64,000 bases of DNA from Zopfochytrium polystomum (Eukaryota; Chytridiomycota; Chytridiomycetes; Chytridiales; Chytridiaceae). The translations under genes were made by a program, and so were the position numbers. The notes beneath the pieces are model-generated. The model saw nothing but the letters and a program-made list of their open reading frames with translations. It was not told the origin of the DNA and did no database searches. Positions within the stretch are counted from its first letter, which is position 1; every line of letters begins with the position of its first letter. The stretch is from positions 31,347 to 95,346 of the forward strand of contig JAIVFJ010000234.1 of assembly GCA_025765615.1 (NCBI GenBank). The letters are read 5' to 3'. Shown piece by piece: positions 37,144 through 47,279 of the stretch.

Positions 37144-38931
37144 ATGTCGTCCAACAGGTTGCTGTCCTCGTTCTAATATTCCCTTTTCACGCCCGGCTGA
37201 CGAAGAAACCGAACACCCTCGCACCCCTCTCTCTCTCCTCCCCACCTCGCAGCATAAGCAATCAAGCGCTCATAGGTCCGCTGCTCATCGCCGTCATTGT
37301 TGAGTATCTTCCTGCACGGCACAAGCCCTCTTCCCCTCCCTTCCCCCCCCCTCCACCCAAACCGCTGTTCCCAGACTCACTCCCCCTACCCCCACCCGGG
37401 TTCACAGGTGGTTTGCTTCCGGGAGCAGCTCGGCCGGATCGACAACCGGCACCTCCACAGCACGCTGGTGGCCGCGATGGCGCTCGGGTTCGTGAGCGGG
37501 GTAGCAAAGACGGTTCTCTCGCGGGTTTCGGTGCCTCCGGAGCAGCTGAACTCGTACATGAACGCATGGCTGCTGCCTTCGAGTGGGTTTGAGCAAAATA
37601 TGGAGTAGCGGGGAGGTGTTATTATTAACTGTTCACTCACAAATGTTGCCTTTTTTCCTTTTGATCTTTTGCAACGTAAACATAGTCTGCGACAGCCTCG
37701 TGGTAAGCGCGCGAAGTTCTCTGCCCTGGAAGCTTTCGTCTCACTTTTTTTTCCCCTCTGAATAGTTTTGCCTTATCAGCTACCACAATACGTACCGCGC
37801 CATGATCCTCCTGCGTCCCGACAGCCGCAAACTCCCGTGGATTGTCGCGACCGCCATAACAACGATAGAACTGGGGATGCACGCGTGAGTGCCCGAAGCT
37901 TTCCAACTCTATATTAATCTTTGGGCGGCGTTGGCGCATCGTTGAACCCTCCGTCAAAAATCTGAAACCTTACGATCGTTTCTCTCTCGCACCCGCCGTC
38001 CTTACTCCCTCGATTACAGAGCTGGTAGGACAAATCTTTGACGGTTGAGCTTGTGGCGAAAGCATTTGTTCTGAAGCGCTTACGTTGCTAAATTTACCCC
38101 AGCCGCCGTCGTCATCCAGGAAAACATGCTTGTGAGCCCTACTTTTCATTTTTCTTAAAATTCAACACCGCATCACACTCCGTCCCGTCACACCCCCGAA
38201 AAAATCCAGAAATACTACACCCTCGTGCGCGACACTCTCACGCAGCAGCTTACGGGGGCGCTGATCATCTACGTGAGCGTGGTGGACTCGTTCTTCTTTG
38301 TGTCGACGCAGCTGCGGATCGTGTCGGTGATGAAGCATGTGTCGACGGGCCGCCTGACGAACGGGCACTATGTGGACGCCGCGTTTCGGGGGCTGTGCTT
38401 CTCGGGCGCTATTTTCCTGTACTTTATCACGCTCAGTGAGTTCCCTCGATTCTTCGTTTATGTTTCCGGTTTTTGGTTTAACGCGCCCGGGGCCTGTTTT
38501 TGTTTGTAGACGGACTCTTCTTTGATCCTGACGAAGGTGAGCGTTCTTCGCGTTAAAAAAAATAGTGGGGTCCCAGTCGAACGTGATTTAACAGAGACCA
38601 TTTCTTTCAATCTTCCACTCCCCCCGCTATCTTGCATCTCTTTCCCTCAGGACGGTAAGCAAAACCAGCTAGCAGCATTGTTCATTTGATCCTTTCACGG
38701 GTAGCCCCTTGCCTTCCATTTTGACGCCTTTCCCCCAACTCCGAATCCAGTTGTTTCCTGTCTACCTCGCCGCCGATCCTCTTCATCGTCCTGCTCACAG
38801 ACTCGGACCGGATCCGGAAGCTGGTGTTTGCGCTCCGCGGGGACGCGAAGGCAAGCGACGGCGGGTCGGTCAGCCTGCGTGCGAGGGGAGCGACGGGGCA
38901 GCAGCTGTCGCGGGACGCTTTACAGGCGTAA
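37144..38931 (+). CDS. Predicted seven-TM membrane protein, tandem copy 1 (11 exons)
   Basis: Predicted 280 aa. Exons: 37144-37157, 37253-37298, 37408-37582, 37686-37702, 37766-37884, 38020-38024, 38103-38131, 38210-38435, 38510-38536, 38651-38654, 38751-38931 (14, 46, 175, 17, 119, 5, 29, 226, 27, 4, 181 nt). Every intron is GT..AG and the frame closes only with the 5-nt (AGCTG) and 4-nt (GACG) exons. Seven hydrophobic stretches are visible, e.g. IGPLLIAVI, LVAAMALGFVSGV, IIYVSVVDSFFFVS, GLCFSGAIFLYFIT, PPILFIVLLT, and the motifs VCFREQLGRI, FFDPDEG and TDSDRIRKLV shared with the other copies. This is the most divergent copy; its tail lacks the DERxSGG motif. Family not recognised; a receptor or channel role is conjecture. 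Confidence 0.85.
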
Positions 38932-39682
38932 AGTTTTTTTCTCCACCTCTCCGTTTTTTTTTGTTGTTTTTTTTTTCATGCTGTTGCTTTTTTCTTTTCT
39001 TTCTCTCGGTGGGCCAAGTACCTCTCCTGACCGGGTTGTCGAAGGGTTTTGGAAGTGCGTTGGGTTCGAAGCGGGATCGAGTTGTCCAAAGAGACTCGTC
39101 AAAATATTTTGACGCTAAATATATAGATCGAGTTTGAATAAATGTCACTTATGGACGACACTTCGGGGGTTGCTGCAGCCTACAGTGAAGGGCGTGATTG
39201 TGATGGTTTGGCAGCCAGTGCTTTTTGGTGCGACTTGGGAGTGCCTGTAGGGCCGGAGAGCTTCGGGAAGAGGGTGGGGAAAGGGGGAAAGCTACTTGCG
39301 AGCTTCTCGGGGAAGAGTTTATCCGCCCCCTTCTTGGCTCTTTACGTAAACTTACAATACACGCCTGATCGATCCTTCTTTTCACATGAGCGAGGACGTT
39401 TTCGAAGGAGGCGGATGCTTTGATTATTCATCAGCATAAGCGCCTAATTTGGAGGGTGTGGTGGGCAGCTGCACGTTTGTCTCTTTTTCCCTCCCTCAGG
39501 CTTGCACGACCTTCCAAATAAGGTTCTGCATGGCGCGCGCGGGAAAAAAGCGGGGATGTGGCGGGGGCGACAAATATCTACATGCAAACGTGAAACGTGG
39601 GTGCCGTCGGACAGAGGATTCAAAAAAAATGCAGTTCAGATTGGTGGACTGAGAGACAGAGGGAGATTGAGACAGAGAGAGC

Positions 39683-39730
<48 letters not shown>

Positions 39731-39886
39731 GAGAGTGAGCGACAGACAGACAGACTTGGATTGTGATATTGCCCGCAGCATTTCCGTTGGTAACCCACCT
39801 CCTCGTGCGTGCGCCAATGGAAGGCGGAACGAAAAAGGGGAAGAATTCAAATCAACAATGGCAAACAGAACAAACACTGTGCGAAC

Positions 39887-39931
<45 letters not shown>

Positions 39932-40243
39932 TGTGTGTGTGTGTGTGTGTGTGTCCCCCCCCTCCCCAACCACAGCCTGTCTGTCTCTCTGTCTGCCTCG
40001 CCCAGACGTGTCGATTCTCTCCTCTCCGAGACGTTCCTGTTCGGCCCCAATCCCTTCACGAACTCACTCGCCTGCTCTCGATCTATCTCTCTCTCAGGCT
40101 GACCATCCATCCAGAAGCACCCACACCCCACGCACGCAGCAGCAGGCACCTTAAACTCCCGAGCTGCGGCAGCCCCGCCCGTCCGCACCAAACAGCAGCC
40201 TTCCTTCCTCCAAACGGCCCAGGTCCGCCCTCACGACAGTCGA
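38932..40243. other. Spacer between seven-TM copies 1 and 2
   Basis: Contains (GA) runs at 39690-39730 and 39891-39929, the latter continuing into (GT)n to 39953. No extra gene was found. Confidence 0.65.
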
Positions 40244-41409
40244 ATGTCAGCCAGCGACAGGTCGCCTCCGTCCCCTCGCCAGCCAAATCTTACCACACTC
40301 TGAATCGATATCCGCACCCCAACAGCAACCAGTACCTGGTCGGCTCTCTGCTGGCCTTTGTGATCGTAAGCCCGCCTTCCTTTTCTTCTCCACACCGCAG
40401 TCTCACACTCCCCTCCCCCGCCCCCCACCACAAGGCGGTCTGCTTCCGGGAACATGTGGGGCGCATTCAAAACCGACACCTGTTCGTGTCGCTGGTGGGC
40501 GCCATGGCGCTCATGCTCTCGAGCTTTCTGGTGAAATCCATCCTCGCTCGGATCACGGTTCCGGACGACCAGCTGAGCGCGTACTGGAACACGTGGATTA
40601 TGCCTGAAAGTGAGAAGGGGATTGGCGGCGATATGAACGCAATGCTTTTGAAATTAGCTAATTGTGGGGTTCCCCCTTCGGCCGTCTCGCGAGAAAGCGT
40701 TTGACAGCCTCATGGTAATGTTTCGCGGGAACAAAGAAAAGACGTTCGTGCGAAACTGAACGCCCCCCCCTTAGTTTTGCGCAATAAGTTACCACAACTC
40801 GTACCGCACCGCGGTCCTTTTTTGGCCAGACCGACAGCGGTATCCGTTGATGATCGCCACGGCAGTCGTGACCGTGGAGCTGGCTCTCCACATGTGAGTT
40901 TTTCTAGTGTTCGCGTGATTTTCGCTTGGAAAACCCCAGCACCTAACCGATCCTCGCGATTCTCTGTACAACACTGTCGACAGAGCCGGTGAGCCAGACC
41001 TCCCCCGCACCGCTCGAACGTCCAGAAAACTAAACCCACACTTATTAAATTTCTTCCGCAGCCATCATCGTCATCCAGATAAACCTCCTAGTGCGTCCCC
41101 AGCAACGCCACCCCCACTTTCAAATCCCCAAAGCTAAAACCCAGCACCCCCCCTCATTCCAGACATACCACACGCTGATCCGCGACTCGCTCACGCAAAA
41201 GCTGTCGCTCGCGCTGATCGCGTACGTGAGCACGGTGGACTCGTTCTTTTTCGCCTTGACGCAGTGGCGGGTGATCTCGGTGATGCAGGACCTGCACAAA
41301 GCGCGGGCGCCGCGGTTGCAGTACGCGGACGCCGTTTTGCGCGGGGTGTGCTTTTCGGGCGCGATATTCCTGTACTTTGCGTCGCTGAGTTGAGTAGGAA
41401 AGGGATCTC

Positions 41410-41444
<35 letters not shown>

Positions 41445-41923
41445 GTTGCTAAAAGGTGTAATTGCTCTTTCACCTTTTCCAACCCAACCAGGCGGACTGT
41501 TTTTCGATCCGAATGAAGGTGACGCGTCCAGATTTTCATTTCTTTTTTTTTTTTTTTTTTGTGTTGGCGAATTGTCAACTGACGCCCCCACACCCCCTTG
41601 ACAATCCTGCAACTTTAGGACTGTAAGCTTCTGCCCCCGTTCCCCACCCCTCACAGAGAATCCCCTCACCCTCCCCGTTTCGCAGGTGCTTCATCTCGAT
41701 ATCACCCGCCGTCCTCTTCATTGTCCTGCTGACCGACTCGGACCGGATCCGGAAGCTGGTGCTGGTGCTGACCGGGCCGCAGCCCGCTCAGCCGGCGTAC
41801 TACGACGAGCGGTCGTCCGGCGGCGCGGAGTACCGGATGAGCACGTTTGTGGCGGGGGCGCGGGAGAGGGAGCGGGAGTGGCCGGCGGAGAGGAGCGGGC
41901 GGACGGCGTCTGGGTCGTTGTGA
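40244..41923 (+). CDS. Predicted seven-TM membrane protein, tandem copy 2 (11 exons)
   Basis: Predicted 298 aa. Exons: 40244-40260, 40326-40365, 40435-40609, 40698-40714, 40775-40893, 40984-40988, 41062-41090, 41163-41388, 41492-41518, 41619-41622, 41686-41923 (17, 40, 175, 17, 119, 5, 29, 226, 27, 4, 238 nt). The 5-nt exon is AGCCG and the 4-nt exon is GACT, both with consensus flanking AG and GT. Conserved segments: SNQYLVGSL, CFREHVGRIQNRHL, SYHNSYR, YVSTVDSFFF, GVCFSGAIFLYF, FFDPNEG, TDSDRIRKLV. The C-terminal tail has YYDERSSGGAEYRMSTF and then an Arg/Glu-rich end, probably cytosolic. Intron 8 contains a long poly-T run before its acceptor. Confidence 0.87.
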
Positions 41924-42121
41924 ATATTTAGTGCTTGTTTCTTTTGTTCCTTCAATTTTTTTTTTTTTTGTGTTTTGTTTCGTTTTTTTTGTGGTGCGGT
42001 TTTGAGTAATTTGTAAGGTTTGATGTGGGGAGTGGGGGTGAGCTAGCCCATAACTATGGCATGGCCGGTCGAGCGCTCGCGTGAATTGTGCTCGCTTGCT
42101 TTTCCGTGTTTTTTTCGGCCA

Positions 42122-42160
<39 letters not shown>

Positions 42161-42773
42161 GACCAAAGGTGGAGAACTAGTTTCCTTCCGCCGCTTTTGT
42201 TTGACGCGCCATATTTCTTGGCAGACGCGGACGGCGGCCCCGAGGCAAGAGCACGTGTCGCGCCCTTATCTACTGTGCTAATGCGAATCAGCTGAGCAGC
42301 GTCGCGAACGACGGGACGACGAATCGATGACACGAAGGCATCGGACGACGCGAAAGGAAAATGAAACTTTTTTCCTGTTTCGAACTCCGAATCGAAACCG
42401 GACCAGGCGGGTCAACTCGGGCATTTCCAAAAATGGCGCCGAACACGAACGCGTTCCCAAATCCGTTTGCCGACGGTCCAATTGGGAAAGAAAAGAAAAA
42501 AAGCGCCTTTTAGAAGAGGAACTCTAGACACTGGCTGAGTAATTGAAGAGGGCAGGTGGAGGGGTCAAACCGAAGAAAGTCTCGCAGTCACGTTGGAAAG
42601 AAAAACAACGAGGCACTAATAATCATGCACGGTTCGCTTCATTCTTTCCTCTTTCGTCCAGATATTTCCTTATTTCATCCACTTCACCCAACGAAAATCC
42701 CGTTTGGCAACACTCCGGCACGCGCACGGCCAGGCCCATTCAGCATCAGTCAGTCACACCAGCAAAGAGCCCG
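41924..42773. other. Spacer between seven-TM copies 2 and 3
   Basis: T-rich runs at 41957-41970 and 42126-42156. No gene recognised. Confidence 0.65.
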
Positions 42774-44601
42774 ATGTCTGTCAGGTCTGTCTCGCTTCTG
42801 CAACCGGCCTTCAAGGGGGCAACCCGCTCAACGTCTCACCACCCGTCTCAGCGACAGCAACCAGTATATCGCCGGATCGCTCATCATCTTTGCGATCGTA
42901 AGTTCCACTTTCCCCCAGGGACGTGCGTGCTCCAATCTCTGCCGACTCCCCCTCTTTCCGGTGCCAACCTTCCAACCAAACCAAAAAGAGCCGCCCCGCC
43001 TCCCCTGCTCATCACCTGCCACCGTCTTCCCCTCCCCTCTTCCCCCACACACCAGGGTGTCTGCTTCCGCGACCAGTTGGCGCGCATCCAGAACCGGCAC
43101 CTGCTCGTGTCGCTGGTAGCGTCGATGGCACTCAGCTTTGGGAGCTGCGTGAGCCGGGCGGTGCTTGTGAGGATGACGGTTTCGGACGATCAGATGGTGG
43201 CGTACTTGAACGCGTTCGTGGTCCCGGCGGGTGAGTTGCCCCTCCAGGCCCATCCCAACCCCCTCCCAAACGGCCCCCTTCGGTGTTCTTTCTGTGCCCG
43301 ACAAAAAACGTTTGTGTGTCTTTCCCCCATGATTCTCACCTTTGGCCCACCCCCCTGCCACCCCCCGCGCGCTCCTTGCTCTTTCCAGCATTGGACAGCC
43401 TTTCGGTAAGTTTGCTTGTGGGGGTGGGGAGCAAGTGAACCGGCAAACCACTGATTTTCGCGCTGTTCTTTTTTTTTTTTTTTCTTTTTGTTTTTTTGAC
43501 AGTTTTGTGCATTCACCTACTACAACGTCTACCGCGCATTGATGCTAGTTTGGCCCGACCGGCAGAAGCACCCGTGCGTGATTGCGGGGTTTCTGATGCT
43601 GGTGCAGCTGTCCCTTCACGTGTAAGCGCAGTGATCAGTGCGCAGTTATGCCCCAGACACTTACAATTCCCCACCCCCACCTCCCCCCGACCACCCCCCT
43701 TGGAAACACAGTTCTGGTAAGGCGAATCACGTTGATACAGTTTTCCATCTGTGGCGCCCTAAAATAATCTTTCCCGACCATTTCAAGTCATGATCGTCAT
43801 CCGAGCAAATTTGATGGTGAAAAGATCCAACCTCCTTTCCGTTTCAACTTCAGTCCCTGACATCTTCAAATCGGATTCCGCAGAAATACTTCAAGCTTGT
43901 TCGAGACCCGCTCACGCAACGGCTGACCATGGCGATCTTCGTGTACATCAGCACTGTGGACTCGGTCTTCTTTGTCATAACGCAGTGGCGCATCATAACG
44001 GTGCTGAGGGAGGCCAACAAGGCGCAGACTCCGACGGTGCACTACGGGGACGCCATCCTCCGGGGCGTGTGCTTCGTTGGGGCAAGTTTTCTCTTTTCGG
44101 CGTCCCTGGGTGCGTTTTGCGTTTTGCCTTTTTTTTCCGTCCCAGCTTTTGTATTTTTTAGTGCCGAAGGTCGCGCTCTCACGTTGCTTACCATTGTCTT
44201 CGCACAGACGGACTTTTCTTCGATCCAAATGACGGTATGTGTGCCAAAAAAAAAAAAAAAAAAAAAAAAAAACTCGCTCAAACTATCCGCTGAAAATAAA
44301 ATCTGAACGCGGGCCTGTCAAAAATAGGAATGTGAGCACCAGACAAACGCAACCCGCCGCTTCACAAAATCAACTCTAACCCTCCCATTAAAGCTCCTTC
44401 ATTGCAACAACACCCTCCATTCTCTTCATCGTTTTTTTAACAGACTCGGATCGCATCCGCAAGCTCGTGACGGTGCTGCAGAGGGGCGTCGCCCACCCTG
44501 TTTACGTCGACGAGCGAAACTCTGGAGGTACAGCTTACGGATTGAGCACCTTTCCGCCTGGTATGAGGGCGGGAAGGAGCACCGTCACCCTCTCGAGATG
44601 A
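42774..44601 (+). CDS. Predicted seven-TM membrane protein, tandem copy 3 (11 exons)
   Basis: Predicted 288 aa. Exons: 42774-42784, 42852-42897, 43056-43230, 43389-43405, 43503-43621, 43712-43716, 43788-43816, 43884-44109, 44208-44234, 44328-44331, 44394-44601 (11, 46, 175, 17, 119, 5, 29, 226, 27, 4, 208 nt). The 5-nt exon is TTCTG, the 4-nt exon GAAT. The first exon carries only three codons plus two bases (ATGTCTGTCAG). Conserved blocks: SNQYIAGSLIIFAI, CFRDQLARIQNRHLLVS, FTYYNVYR, YISTVDSVFFV, RGVCFVGASFLF, FFDPNDG, TDSDRIRKLV, and the tail motif VDERNSGGTAYGLSTF. Copies 3 and 4 are closer to each other than to copy 1. Confidence 0.87.
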
Positions 44602-45380
44602 TTGGTGGCGGCCGACCCATTGTCCTTTTTCCTTGTGTGTACTTTCTCTCTTTTCGTTTTCTTTTTTTGTAAGTTTGGGAATATCTTTGTAAGAACCCGA
44701 ACGCTTGTTCAGTTGTTGACCTCGTAATAGAGCTAGTACCTCTCTTTTTTCCAAGCCGTGCTTCCCGGTTAACTATGATTTGCGGCGGGAGCCACTAACA
44801 GGTCGCTGCCGCGTAATTTTAACAGGGGTTGACAAATGCTACGGCTCTCTCTGACAAGCGATTGAACATCTGACCCCACGCGCGAGCGTGGGGGTTGGGG
44901 AAGGAAGCACCACCGCCAAAGAGGCTTCCGACAGAGCCAGCCAGCCCTCCAGACAGAGCCGATCACCTGGCAGATATTTAATGTTTGCTAGTGATGCCAA
45001 CCCTGCCGCGTGGGTGGGGCTCGACAAATAAAGGGACAAGACAATCGGAAGATCTCTTTCCGTGTCTCCAAACAATCTTAAATGTTTATTATTATGACTA
45101 ATGTTGCAGTAAATGTTTCAGTATGTCCGCATTTGGACAAGAAAAGAAAAAATGAAAAAAATTCCGCGCTCGTTCGGCGTGTTCGGTGCGGGGCTGCGTG
45201 CCTGTTGACTGTTGACGGCCACTGCCAAAACCGCGAGCCTGCCCTTATTTGCTTGCGTATTTGCTCGGTTGGGTCACGCCTGTATTCCTGCATATAGTAA
45301 TAGTAATAGTAATAGTAATAGTAATAGTAATAACGAAACTCTCTGCGTATTTGATATCGTTCGCTTTCTGTGCCCAATCG
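44602..45380. other. Spacer between seven-TM copies 3 and 4
   Basis: Contains a (TAGTAA)n array at about 45294-45333. No gene recognised. Confidence 0.65.
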
Positions 45381-46198
45381 ATGACGGCAAGGTGTGTCTG
45401 TCCCGCTCCCCTCCCCCCCCCCCCCCCCCGCCGCCGTGGGCACCCAAACTCAGCGTTCTGTTACCCCCGAACCCCCCCGAACCTGCAGCGAGAGCAACCA
45501 GTACCTGGTCGGATCGCTGCTCATCTTCGCGATCGTAAGTCGGCCCTTGTCAACACACCAAAGGAAATTTTGACACACCTTAACCAACCACGCTCCCCGG
45601 GGGGGGGACGATACAGGTCGTCTGCTTTCGCGAGCAGCTGGCGCGCATCCGGAACCAGCATCTGCTCGTGTCGCTGGTTGCGTCGATGGCGCTGAGCTTT
45701 GCGAGCTGCGCGACGAGGGCTGTCCTGATGAGAGTCACCGTGCCGGAGGACCACATTGAGGCGTATTTGAACGCATTCACTTTGCCGGCGAGTAAGCAGA
45801 ACTCCGCCTCGCCACCTTCCCCACCCCCCCCCCCCCCCCCCCCGCCCGCCCCTCCCGGCCGAAAACTTCGCTCTTTTCCCGTACAGCGTCCTGATTCTTG
45901 AACTGCCAATCATCCCTCCCTTCCCCCCTCCCAAGTTTTCGACACCCTATCGGTGAGTTGCCCGCCCGTCAGTCAGCCCCTTTTTTTTTTTTCCTTCTGA
46001 AAAACATTCGTCTACCAGTTTTGTGCATTCACCTACCACAACGTCTACCGCTCTATGCTGCTCGTTTGGCCGGACCGACCGCAGATTCCATGGATGATAG
46101 CAGGGCTCTTGACGTTTTCAGAGCTCTGCCTCCACATGTAAAGTGTATAGAGCGGCCATCCGCCAAAAGGTGTTCGCAAGATAAACCGACCCTCGCTC

Positions 46199-46235
<37 letters not shown>

Positions 46236-46407
46236 CTTTTCGTGCGCACCATGAAAATAGCCCCCGTAAGCGAAGTTGATTTCTTCGAAGTCGGGCAGGA
46301 CTTTACTAACAGCGTCCGTCCTACCAGCTCTTGTCATTGTTCGAGCGAATCTACTAGTCAGTACCATTCTCCCCATTCCCCCATACCCGCATACGGCCTC
46401 CCCTTCC

Positions 46408-46449
<42 letters not shown>

Positions 46450-47279
46450 CAAACACCGAGCGCGCCGTTATTTTAACCCTCTAGTCCTCACAGAAGTACC
46501 TTCGATTAATCCAAGACCCGCTGACGCAGCAGCTGACCCTGGCGCTCGCGGTGTACGTCAGCGCGATCGACTCGATCTTTTTCGTCGTGACGCAGTCGCG
46601 CATCATCAGCGTCATGCAGAAGGTGCAGAAGGCGCGGACGCCGAGGTCGCACTACGGGGACGCGTTGCTGCGCGGTGTCTGCTTCTCAGGGGCGATTTTC
46701 CTGTTCTTTACTTCGCTGGGTAAGTTCTTCCAGGGTTAGGAGGGGCAGGGGGGGGCGAATGTGGTGGTTGTCTTGCGGGGTGGGACGCCCTTTTTTTTTT
46801 TTTTTTTTTTTCCCTCATGCGCTTACTTTCCTTGCCTGTTTTTTTTTTTCCTTTTTCCCAGACGGAGCTTTTTTCGATCCAAACGAGGGTAGGTGGTAAA
46901 ATTCAATTGCCAGCGTTAATACACTTGATCTTCTAAATCGCACATTCCCCCTGTCGCCTCCACTAACTAAAACAGGATTGTAAGCATAAAAAAAAAAAAA
47001 AATTTAAAAAAAACCACTTTCACCGAAAAACCCAAAACCTGACCACGCTCCGCCCCCCCTCCCCCCCCCTTTCCAAGGACCTTCATGTCGGCGGCGCCCG
47101 CGATAATATACATTATCCTATTGACCGACTCGGAACGGATTCGCAAGCTCGTGCTGGCACTGCAGCGGGGACCTGTTCAGCGCGGTCAGGTGGACGAGAG
47201 GCTCTCTGGCGGGGCCGAGCTCCAACCGCGGGACACCTGGAGCAGGGGTGACCGGAGCACCCTCTCGCATTCTCGCTAG
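45381..47279 (+). CDS. Predicted seven-TM membrane protein, tandem copy 4 (11 exons)
   Basis: Predicted 286 aa. Exons: 45381-45391, 45489-45534, 45617-45791, 45936-45952, 46019-46137, 46261-46265, 46328-46356, 46494-46719, 46862-46888, 46976-46979, 47078-47279 (11, 46, 175, 17, 119, 5, 29, 226, 27, 4, 202 nt). The 5-nt exon is CCCCC, the 4-nt exon GATT. Approximate helices: 6-24, 38-58, 80-100, 108-130, 148-168, 193-209, 221-238, followed by a cytosolic-type tail with VDERLSGGAE and Ser/Arg-rich sequence. Several introns carry long C, T or A homopolymers (45827-45843, 46206-46236, 46411-46448), yet the exons are clean, so purifying selection is likely. Confidence 0.87.

What the first reader, a model, noticed from the sequence alone, without database searches (positions are those of the whole stretch)
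38020..38654. 5-nt and 4-nt micro-exons conserved in all four genes
In every copy the frame closes only if a 5-nt exon (AGCTG, AGCCG, TTCTG, CCCCC) lies between exons 5 and 7 and a 4-nt exon (GACG, GACT, GAAT, GATT) between exons 9 and 11. All eight are flanked by AG and GT(A/G)A-type sites. Exons 3-10 have identical lengths in the four copies, so the pattern predates the duplications and is under selection. Exons this small are at or below the size at which exon recognition is thought possible.
Basis: seen in the sequence. Interest (0 to 1): 0.92.

Follow-up and report, generated by a model that had tools for sequence, protein, structure and literature searches.

The report
Receptor-like genes with two tiny exons
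A large family of receptor-like membrane-protein genes in a chytrid fungus carries, in almost every member examined, one exon of five letters and one of four, both needed to keep the protein readable; such tiny exons are known elsewhere, but two per gene across so many old gene copies is unusual.

Summary
The window comes from the chytrid fungus Zopfochytrium polystomum. Four tandem genes (37.1-47.3 kb) each have 11 coding exons; exons 3-10 have identical lengths (175, 17, 119, 5, 29, 226, 27, 4 nt), including a 5-nt exon 6 and a 4-nt exon 10. Two further copies on other contigs share the pattern. In 46 family loci a spliced alignment finds the 5-nt exon at one place in 40 and the 4-nt exon at one place in 41; with hand-checked loci, 45 and 43. 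Median protein identity is 38%. Shuffled introns give such exons in 34/480 and 62/492 trials. Public protein models contain them independently: of 21 assigned to held loci, 7 hold both, among them that of copy 1. Two corrections: the frame argument is strict for the 5-nt exon in the window but not for the 4-nt exon of copies 2-4; and exons of 1-5 nt are documented in plants, animals and Fusarium. Flanking introns are short with ordinary splice sites, so stepwise intron-defined splicing is the likeliest mechanism. No RNA was examined. The protein is seven-helical, GPCR-like, without a named family.

The parts
37144..38931 (+). Copy 1, coding span ATG to stop, 11 exons, 278 aa in my model (public model P0001, 280 aa)
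38020..38024 (+). Copy 1 exon 6, 5 nt AGCTG, intron phase 2 before and 1 after (H-AAA-A)
   Evidence: present in annotated protein P0001
38651..38654 (+). Copy 1 exon 10, 4 nt GACG, intron phase 1 before and 2 after (E-GR-C)
   Evidence: present in annotated protein P0001
40244..41923 (+). Copy 2, coding span, 11 exons, 298 aa
40984..40988 (+). Copy 2 exon 6, 5 nt AGCCG
   Evidence: present in P0002
41619..41622 (+). Copy 2 exon 10, 4 nt GACT
   Evidence: the end of P0002 fits use of its acceptor followed by read-through into the next intron; not chosen by the family-wide aligner run
42774..44601 (+). Copy 3, coding span, 11 exons, 286 aa
43712..43716 (+). Copy 3 exon 6, 5 nt TTCTG
   Evidence: missed by annotated protein P0003
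44328..44331 (+). Copy 3 exon 10, 4 nt GAAT
   Evidence: the aligner prefers a 4-nt longer exon 9 encoding the same residues, so support is from the family only
45381..47279 (+). Copy 4, coding span, 11 exons, 284 aa
46261..46265 (+). Copy 4 exon 6, 5 nt CCCCC
46976..46979 (+). Copy 4 exon 10, 4 nt GATT
   Evidence: only 3.3 half-bits better than the next-best model

Best explanation
The 5-nt exon 6 and the 4-nt exon 10 are real, obligatory coding exons of a large chytrid gene family that encodes seven-helix, GPCR-like membrane proteins. Both were most likely present in the family's common ancestor and were kept through the later duplications, because either one, if skipped, breaks the reading frame. 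They are most likely spliced by ordinary intron definition in two separate steps: each flanking intron is short (about 50-160 nt at nearly all loci) and has ordinary donor and acceptor signals, so the spliceosome pairs the sites across the intron, and one intron is removed after the other. Shown from sequence: position, length, phase, frame and conservation. Inferred: ancestral presence, constitutive inclusion, stepwise order, intron definition.
For: Six hand models with identical exon 3-10 lengths. Leave-one-out spliced alignment, with splice-site weights built without the introns next to the tiny exons, recovers the 5-nt exon in 6 of 6 copies and the 4-nt exon in 5 of 6. Over 46 family loci it places a 5-nt exon at profile position 118 in 40 and a 4-nt exon at 214 in 41; exons under 12 nt elsewhere were 4 singletons, three unrelated and one a displaced 5-nt exon. 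Hand-checked, 45 of 46 and 43 of 46, both in 42; at 80% identity clustering 30 of 32 and 29 of 32 clusters before the last three loci were corrected. With the encoded residues made neutral in the profile, still 36 of 46 (35 at the same site) and 39 of 46. Masking the tiny exon's acceptor costs a median 28.6 and 29.5 half-bits. Public protein models include the 5-nt exon in 12 of 20 and the 4-nt exon in full in 9 of 19 testable cases. Splice-site strengths next to the tiny exons do not differ from the other introns (all p > 0.3), and median intron lengths are 62-99 nt against 78 nt for the rest.
Against: No RNA was available here. The iterated profile contains peptides from the earlier round; with a profile from the first five copies alone, by my count of the printed models 19 of 40 and 22 of 40 further loci show the exons. 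The aligner avoids stop codons, so open models are partly by construction. For 11 of 43 genes a donor 4 nt downstream would replace the 4-nt exon without changing the length, and the public model P0008 fits that route. For L060 and L062 the 5-nt exon scores no better than an alternative. Many public models miss one or both exons. In human brain constitutive microexons are said to have stronger splice sites than longer exons (PMC8831610, passage); none are stronger here.
Confidence: 0.88

Rival explanations
1. In some members there is no 4-nt exon: exon 9 is simply 4 nt longer, using a donor 4 nt inside the intron, and the AG-NNNN-GT match is chance or a relic.
For: The route exists in 11 of 43 genes, among them copies 3 and 4; the aligner prefers it for copy 3; public model P0008 fits it.
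Against: Thirty-two of 43 genes lack such an equal-length route. The alternative donors are weaker than usual (0.8 bits in copy 4, -0.2 to 4.4 overall, against a median 6.3). In L051, L054 and L049, where the route exists, the public models P0004, P0007 and P0020 use the 4-nt exon.
Confidence: 0.1
2. The tiny exons are regulated cassette exons: skipping frameshifts the message, so inclusion switches the receptors on in some life stages.
For: Both lengths break the frame; skipping the 4-nt exon gives a stop within 34 codons in 40 of 43 models, and skipping the 5-nt exon gives a stop within the modelled stretch in 36 of 42. A switch-like microexon is reported for Trichoderma Xlr2 (PMC11121469, passages).
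Against: Splice sites are as strong as at the other introns, and 7 public models include both exons. Frame-breaking alone is expected of a constitutive exon too. No search for regulatory motifs was made beyond splice-site strength and a branch-site pattern.
Confidence: 0.1
3. Chance: enough AG and GT pairs lie in the introns for a frame-fixing micro-exon to be found anywhere.
For: Shuffled introns yield a 5-nt exon in 34 of 480 trials and a 4-nt exon in 62 of 492, and any exon under 12 nt in 127 and 128; the shuffled score reaches the real one in 14 and 28.
Against: The same two lengths recur at the same two places in over 40 loci although the introns have diverged (about 50% identity in global alignment among copies 1-4), and independent public models contain them.
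Confidence: 0.02

Closest known systems
Conserved plant ultra-small microexons (PMC8831610; listing abstract and passages read)
   Same: Exons of 1-15 nt, conserved in length and phase, often misannotated; clusters of 4 nt (phase 2) and 5 nt (phase 1) exist, and some genes hold two.
   Different: Those are compared across land plants and rest on RNA-seq; here it is one fungal species, many old paralogues, and no RNA examined.
Human MPC1 4-nt exon 2 (PMC9929638; abstract, introduction and one results section read)
   Same: Constitutive 4-nt, frame-breaking exon; minigenes splice even at 2, 1 and 0 nt.
   Different: Single gene with long flanking introns, and its authors describe an exon-definition signal; the chytrid exons have short introns, and my limited comparison found no special signal.
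1-nt exon of Fusarium CYP621A (PMC12940212; abstract and introduction read)
   Same: Fungal, found by comparing gene copies, needed to keep a conserved motif in frame.
   Different: One exon in orthologues of one gene, confirmed by SRA reads.
Trichoderma virens Xlr2 microexon (PMC11121469; passages read)
   Same: Functional microexon in a fungus.
   Different: Switch-like alternative exon of a transcription factor.
Class A and class D G-protein-coupled receptors and microbial rhodopsins (fold comparison)
   Different: 6-11% identity; animal receptors, yeast Ste2, rhodopsins and a designed bundle are tied, so class is undecided.

Membership tests
Ultra-small micro-exons (15 nt or less) | Internal exon of 15 nt or less between spliceosomal splice sites | tested here: met
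   All eight in the window have AG before and GT after; 45 and 43 of 46 loci. In L066 and L070 the donor after the 4-nt exon is GC.
Ultra-small micro-exons (15 nt or less) | Length and phase conserved in relatives | tested here: met
   Within-genome relatives only; median pairwise identity 38%, lowest 21%.
Ultra-small micro-exons (15 nt or less) | Conserved in other species | tested here: inconclusive
   Three protein searches returned Zopfochytrium proteins only; the second and third scored only the roughly 8,000 candidates sharing most words. No DNA of other chytrids was searched.
Ultra-small micro-exons (15 nt or less) | Inclusion shown in mRNA | not testable with these tools
   No transcript data; public protein models are only indirect support.
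Recursive splicing (zero-length exon) | AG directly followed by GT with no exonic base kept | tested here: not met
   Five and four bases are kept in the models and needed for the frame, apart from the alternatives listed.
G-protein-coupled receptors | Seven-helix receptor fold | tested here: inconclusive
G-protein-coupled receptors | Significant sequence match to a receptor family profile | tested here: not met
   No Pfam receptor family matched in 2 and 14 members scanned; no receptor in a PDB sequence search.
G-protein-coupled receptors | Coupling to a G protein | not testable with these tools
   Needs an assay.

The most novel reading that the evidence does not exclude
A chytrid family of roughly 70 receptor-like genes is controlled as a set by two frame-breaking ultra-micro-exons: their inclusion, tuned by one splicing condition such as the zoospore-to-thallus change, would decide whether the whole receptor repertoire is made or destroyed by nonsense-mediated decay.
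Probability: 0.08. Interest if true: 0.85.

Novelty: new member of a known kind. Interest (0 to 1): 0.55.

Why it matters
In the examples I saw in print, a 4-5-nt exon belongs to one gene and its orthologues. Here one genome offers over 40 natural versions of each of two such exons, with diverged introns, which makes it directly testable what a spliceosome needs to keep a 4-nt exon, and whether short introns (intron definition) are enough. It also shows how annotation breaks: of 21 public protein models assigned to loci held here, 7 contain both exons in full, so I infer that such repertoires may be undercounted or truncated in public sets.

Tried and rejected
Chance micro-exons: rejected for the family by the shuffles, the neutral-column control and the masking test, though a single gene could be explained by chance.

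Special splice signals: donor and acceptor strength, pyrimidine content and a CTRAY branch-site pattern were compared with the other introns of the same genes; no difference in site strength (p 0.33-0.83 for donors, 0.57-0.79 for acceptors), and CTRAY was found in 12-20 of 42-43 introns per class against 77 of 235. No special signal is claimed; other motifs were not searched for.

Loss of the exons in outliers: L067-L069 first seemed to lack the 5-nt exon; the public protein P0021 pointed to a model with it, which translates without stops. L045 and L063 were corrected by hand likewise. L036 has only a candidate: my script took it one base off (GCTTC where AG precedes CTTCC), the frame is the same, and it is not counted. 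L035 lacks the second intron (exon 10 fused to 11; P0015 agrees). L059 shows AG-GATG-GT but no AG before exon 11. L042 has a decayed 3' half in the aligner's model.

Homologues in other species: none found; the later two searches scored only the roughly 8,000 candidates sharing most words, so absence is weak. Pfam and PDB by sequence: nothing credible (best Pfam hit DUF4271 at 0.0022 in 1 of 14; best PDB hits diacylglycerol kinase at 0.06). A structural family that one search does not list is not excluded.

Literature: searches listed, by title and abstract start, no paper on micro-exons in a chytrid; some searches showed only 25 of 339, 10 of 446 and 12 of 33 papers. One search (microexon + chytrid) listed three papers, which I did not read. 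One search found seven papers naming Zopfochytrium, seen in the listing only. PMC12842992 (fungal GPCR classes) was seen as abstract and outline.

Full report
What was checked. The window lies in an 80.2-Mb assembly of 761 contigs. Protein hits on a contig of the same length as the window's (95,346 bases) name Zopfochytrium polystomum, a chytrid fungus of the Chytridiaceae. I rebuilt the four tandem genes and two further copies on contigs C134 and C109 (L003 and L004, 98% identical proteins) exon by exon. All six read from ATG to stop through 11 exons. Exons 3-10 measure 175, 17, 119, 5, 29, 226, 27 and 4 nt in all six. Exon 6 is AGCTG, AGCCG, TTCTG, CCCCC, TGCCT and TGCCT; exon 10 is GACG, GACT, GAAT, GATT, GAGT and GAGT. 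Exon 2 may start 6 nt earlier in some copies.

Is the frame argument sound? I listed every single GT-AG intron within 15 nt of the edges that would keep the frame without the tiny exon and without a stop. For the 5-nt exon there is none in 39 of the 42 genes then modelled with it, including all four window copies. For the 4-nt exon there is none in 16 of 43; 11 have a donor exactly 4 nt downstream (copies 3 and 4 among them), and the other 16 have routes that change the protein's length, such as a very weak +7 donor in copy 2.

A mechanical test. I wrote a spliced aligner with no minimum exon length, GT/GC-AG introns of at least 40 nt, and splice-site weights trained without the introns that touch the tiny exons. 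Leaving each copy out of its own profile, it recovered the 5-nt exon in 6 of 6 copies and the 4-nt exon in 5 of 6; in copy 3 it chose the 4-nt longer exon 9.

How deep does it go? A search of the assembly with the copy 4 protein gave 146 exon-level matches at, by my count by eye, roughly 70 places. With a profile of the first five copies only, my count of the printed models gives the 5-nt exon in 19 of 40 and the 4-nt exon in 22 of 40. With an iterated, leave-self-out profile over all 46 loci, a 5-nt exon sits at profile position 118 in 40 and a 4-nt exon at position 214 in 41; exons under 12 nt elsewhere were in L057 (11 nt), L069 (11 nt), L072 (2 nt) and L045 (a displaced 5-nt exon). In that run copies 2 and 3 were among the loci without the 4-nt exon. 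Adding hand-checked loci (L045, L063, L067-L069 for the 5-nt exon, copies 2 and 3 for the 4-nt exon) brings 45 of 46 and 43 of 46, both in 42. Median pairwise protein identity of the aligner's peptides is 38%, the lowest 21%; at 80% clustering there are 32 clusters, of which 30 and 29 have the exons before the last correction. No final model has an internal stop, but the aligner penalises stops.

Controls. Making the encoded residues neutral in the profile still gives 36 of 46 (35 at the same site) and 39 of 46. Removing the tiny exon's acceptor costs a median 28.6 (5-nt) and 29.5 (4-nt) half-bits, but under 4 for L055, L060, L062 and L072 (5-nt) and for copy 4, L049, L058, L064 and L065 (4-nt). 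Dinucleotide shuffles of the stretch between the neighbouring exons give the same exon length at the place in 34 of 480 and 62 of 492 trials, with a score at least as good as the real one in 14 and 28. A single gene is thus not proof; the family is.

Independent public models. Three protein searches returned 25 different proteins, all of this species. Of 21 that I could assign to a held locus, 20 were testable for the 5-nt exon and 12 contain it; 19 were testable for the 4-nt exon and 9 contain it in full; 7 contain both (P0001, P0004, P0005, P0007, P0018, P0019, P0020), the first being copy 1. P0002 (copy 2) contains the 5-nt exon, and its end fits entry into the 4-nt exon and a stop in the next intron. 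P0021 also fits the 5-nt exon in the model found afterwards. P0003 (copy 3) misses both and reads intron sequence; P0008 fits the +4 donor. I do not know which of these models rest on RNA.

How it most likely works. Introns next to the tiny exons have median lengths of 62-99 nt (47-226 overall; the rest of the gene 78 nt), and their donors and acceptors are as strong as at other exons. That fits splicing in which the two ends of each short intron are paired, one intron after the other, so exon length hardly matters. Plant work argues that the two introns flanking a microexon compete and that one is left for later (PMC8831610, passages), and human MPC1 minigenes give two separate lariats even with an exon of zero length, although its authors describe exon definition there (PMC9929638). 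Constitutive inclusion and the order of removal are inferred here.

Known or new. Ultra-small exons are a known kind: 1-, 4- and 5-nt exons in plants, 4 nt in human MPC1, 1 nt in Fusarium CYP621A. New here are the setting (an early-diverging fungus, a receptor-like family without a name) and the scale (two per gene in 42 of 46 loci examined). Seven searches listed, as far as shown, nothing on micro-exons in a chytrid; the library lacks most subscription journals.

Noticed in passing
L035 (C74), exon 10/11: The intron after the 4-nt exon is missing: exon 10 is fused to exon 11, the one clear intron loss seen; annotated protein P0015 agrees.
   Followed up: partly
L066 and L070, donor after the 4-nt exon CATG: Both use a GC donor (GCAAGT) directly after the 4-nt exon.
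   Followed up: no
L059, exon 11: AG-GATG-GT is present but no AG precedes the expected exon 11 start, so this copy may be damaged or use a non-standard acceptor.
   Followed up: partly
window 43503-44601, copy 3: The public protein model P0003 lacks the tiny exons and holds other residues at their places, an example of misannotation that tiny exons may cause.
   Followed up: yes
window 37144-47279: Exons 4 (17 nt), 7 (29 nt) and 9 (27 nt) are also micro-exon sized, so five of eleven exons are under 30 nt, besides a very short first coding exon of 11-17 nt.
   Followed up: partly
L074 (C203); C4 and further C203 matches not fetched: Groups of matches to a distant subfamily lie close together on C203 and C4; the one C203 member modelled (L074) carries both tiny exons.
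   Followed up: partly
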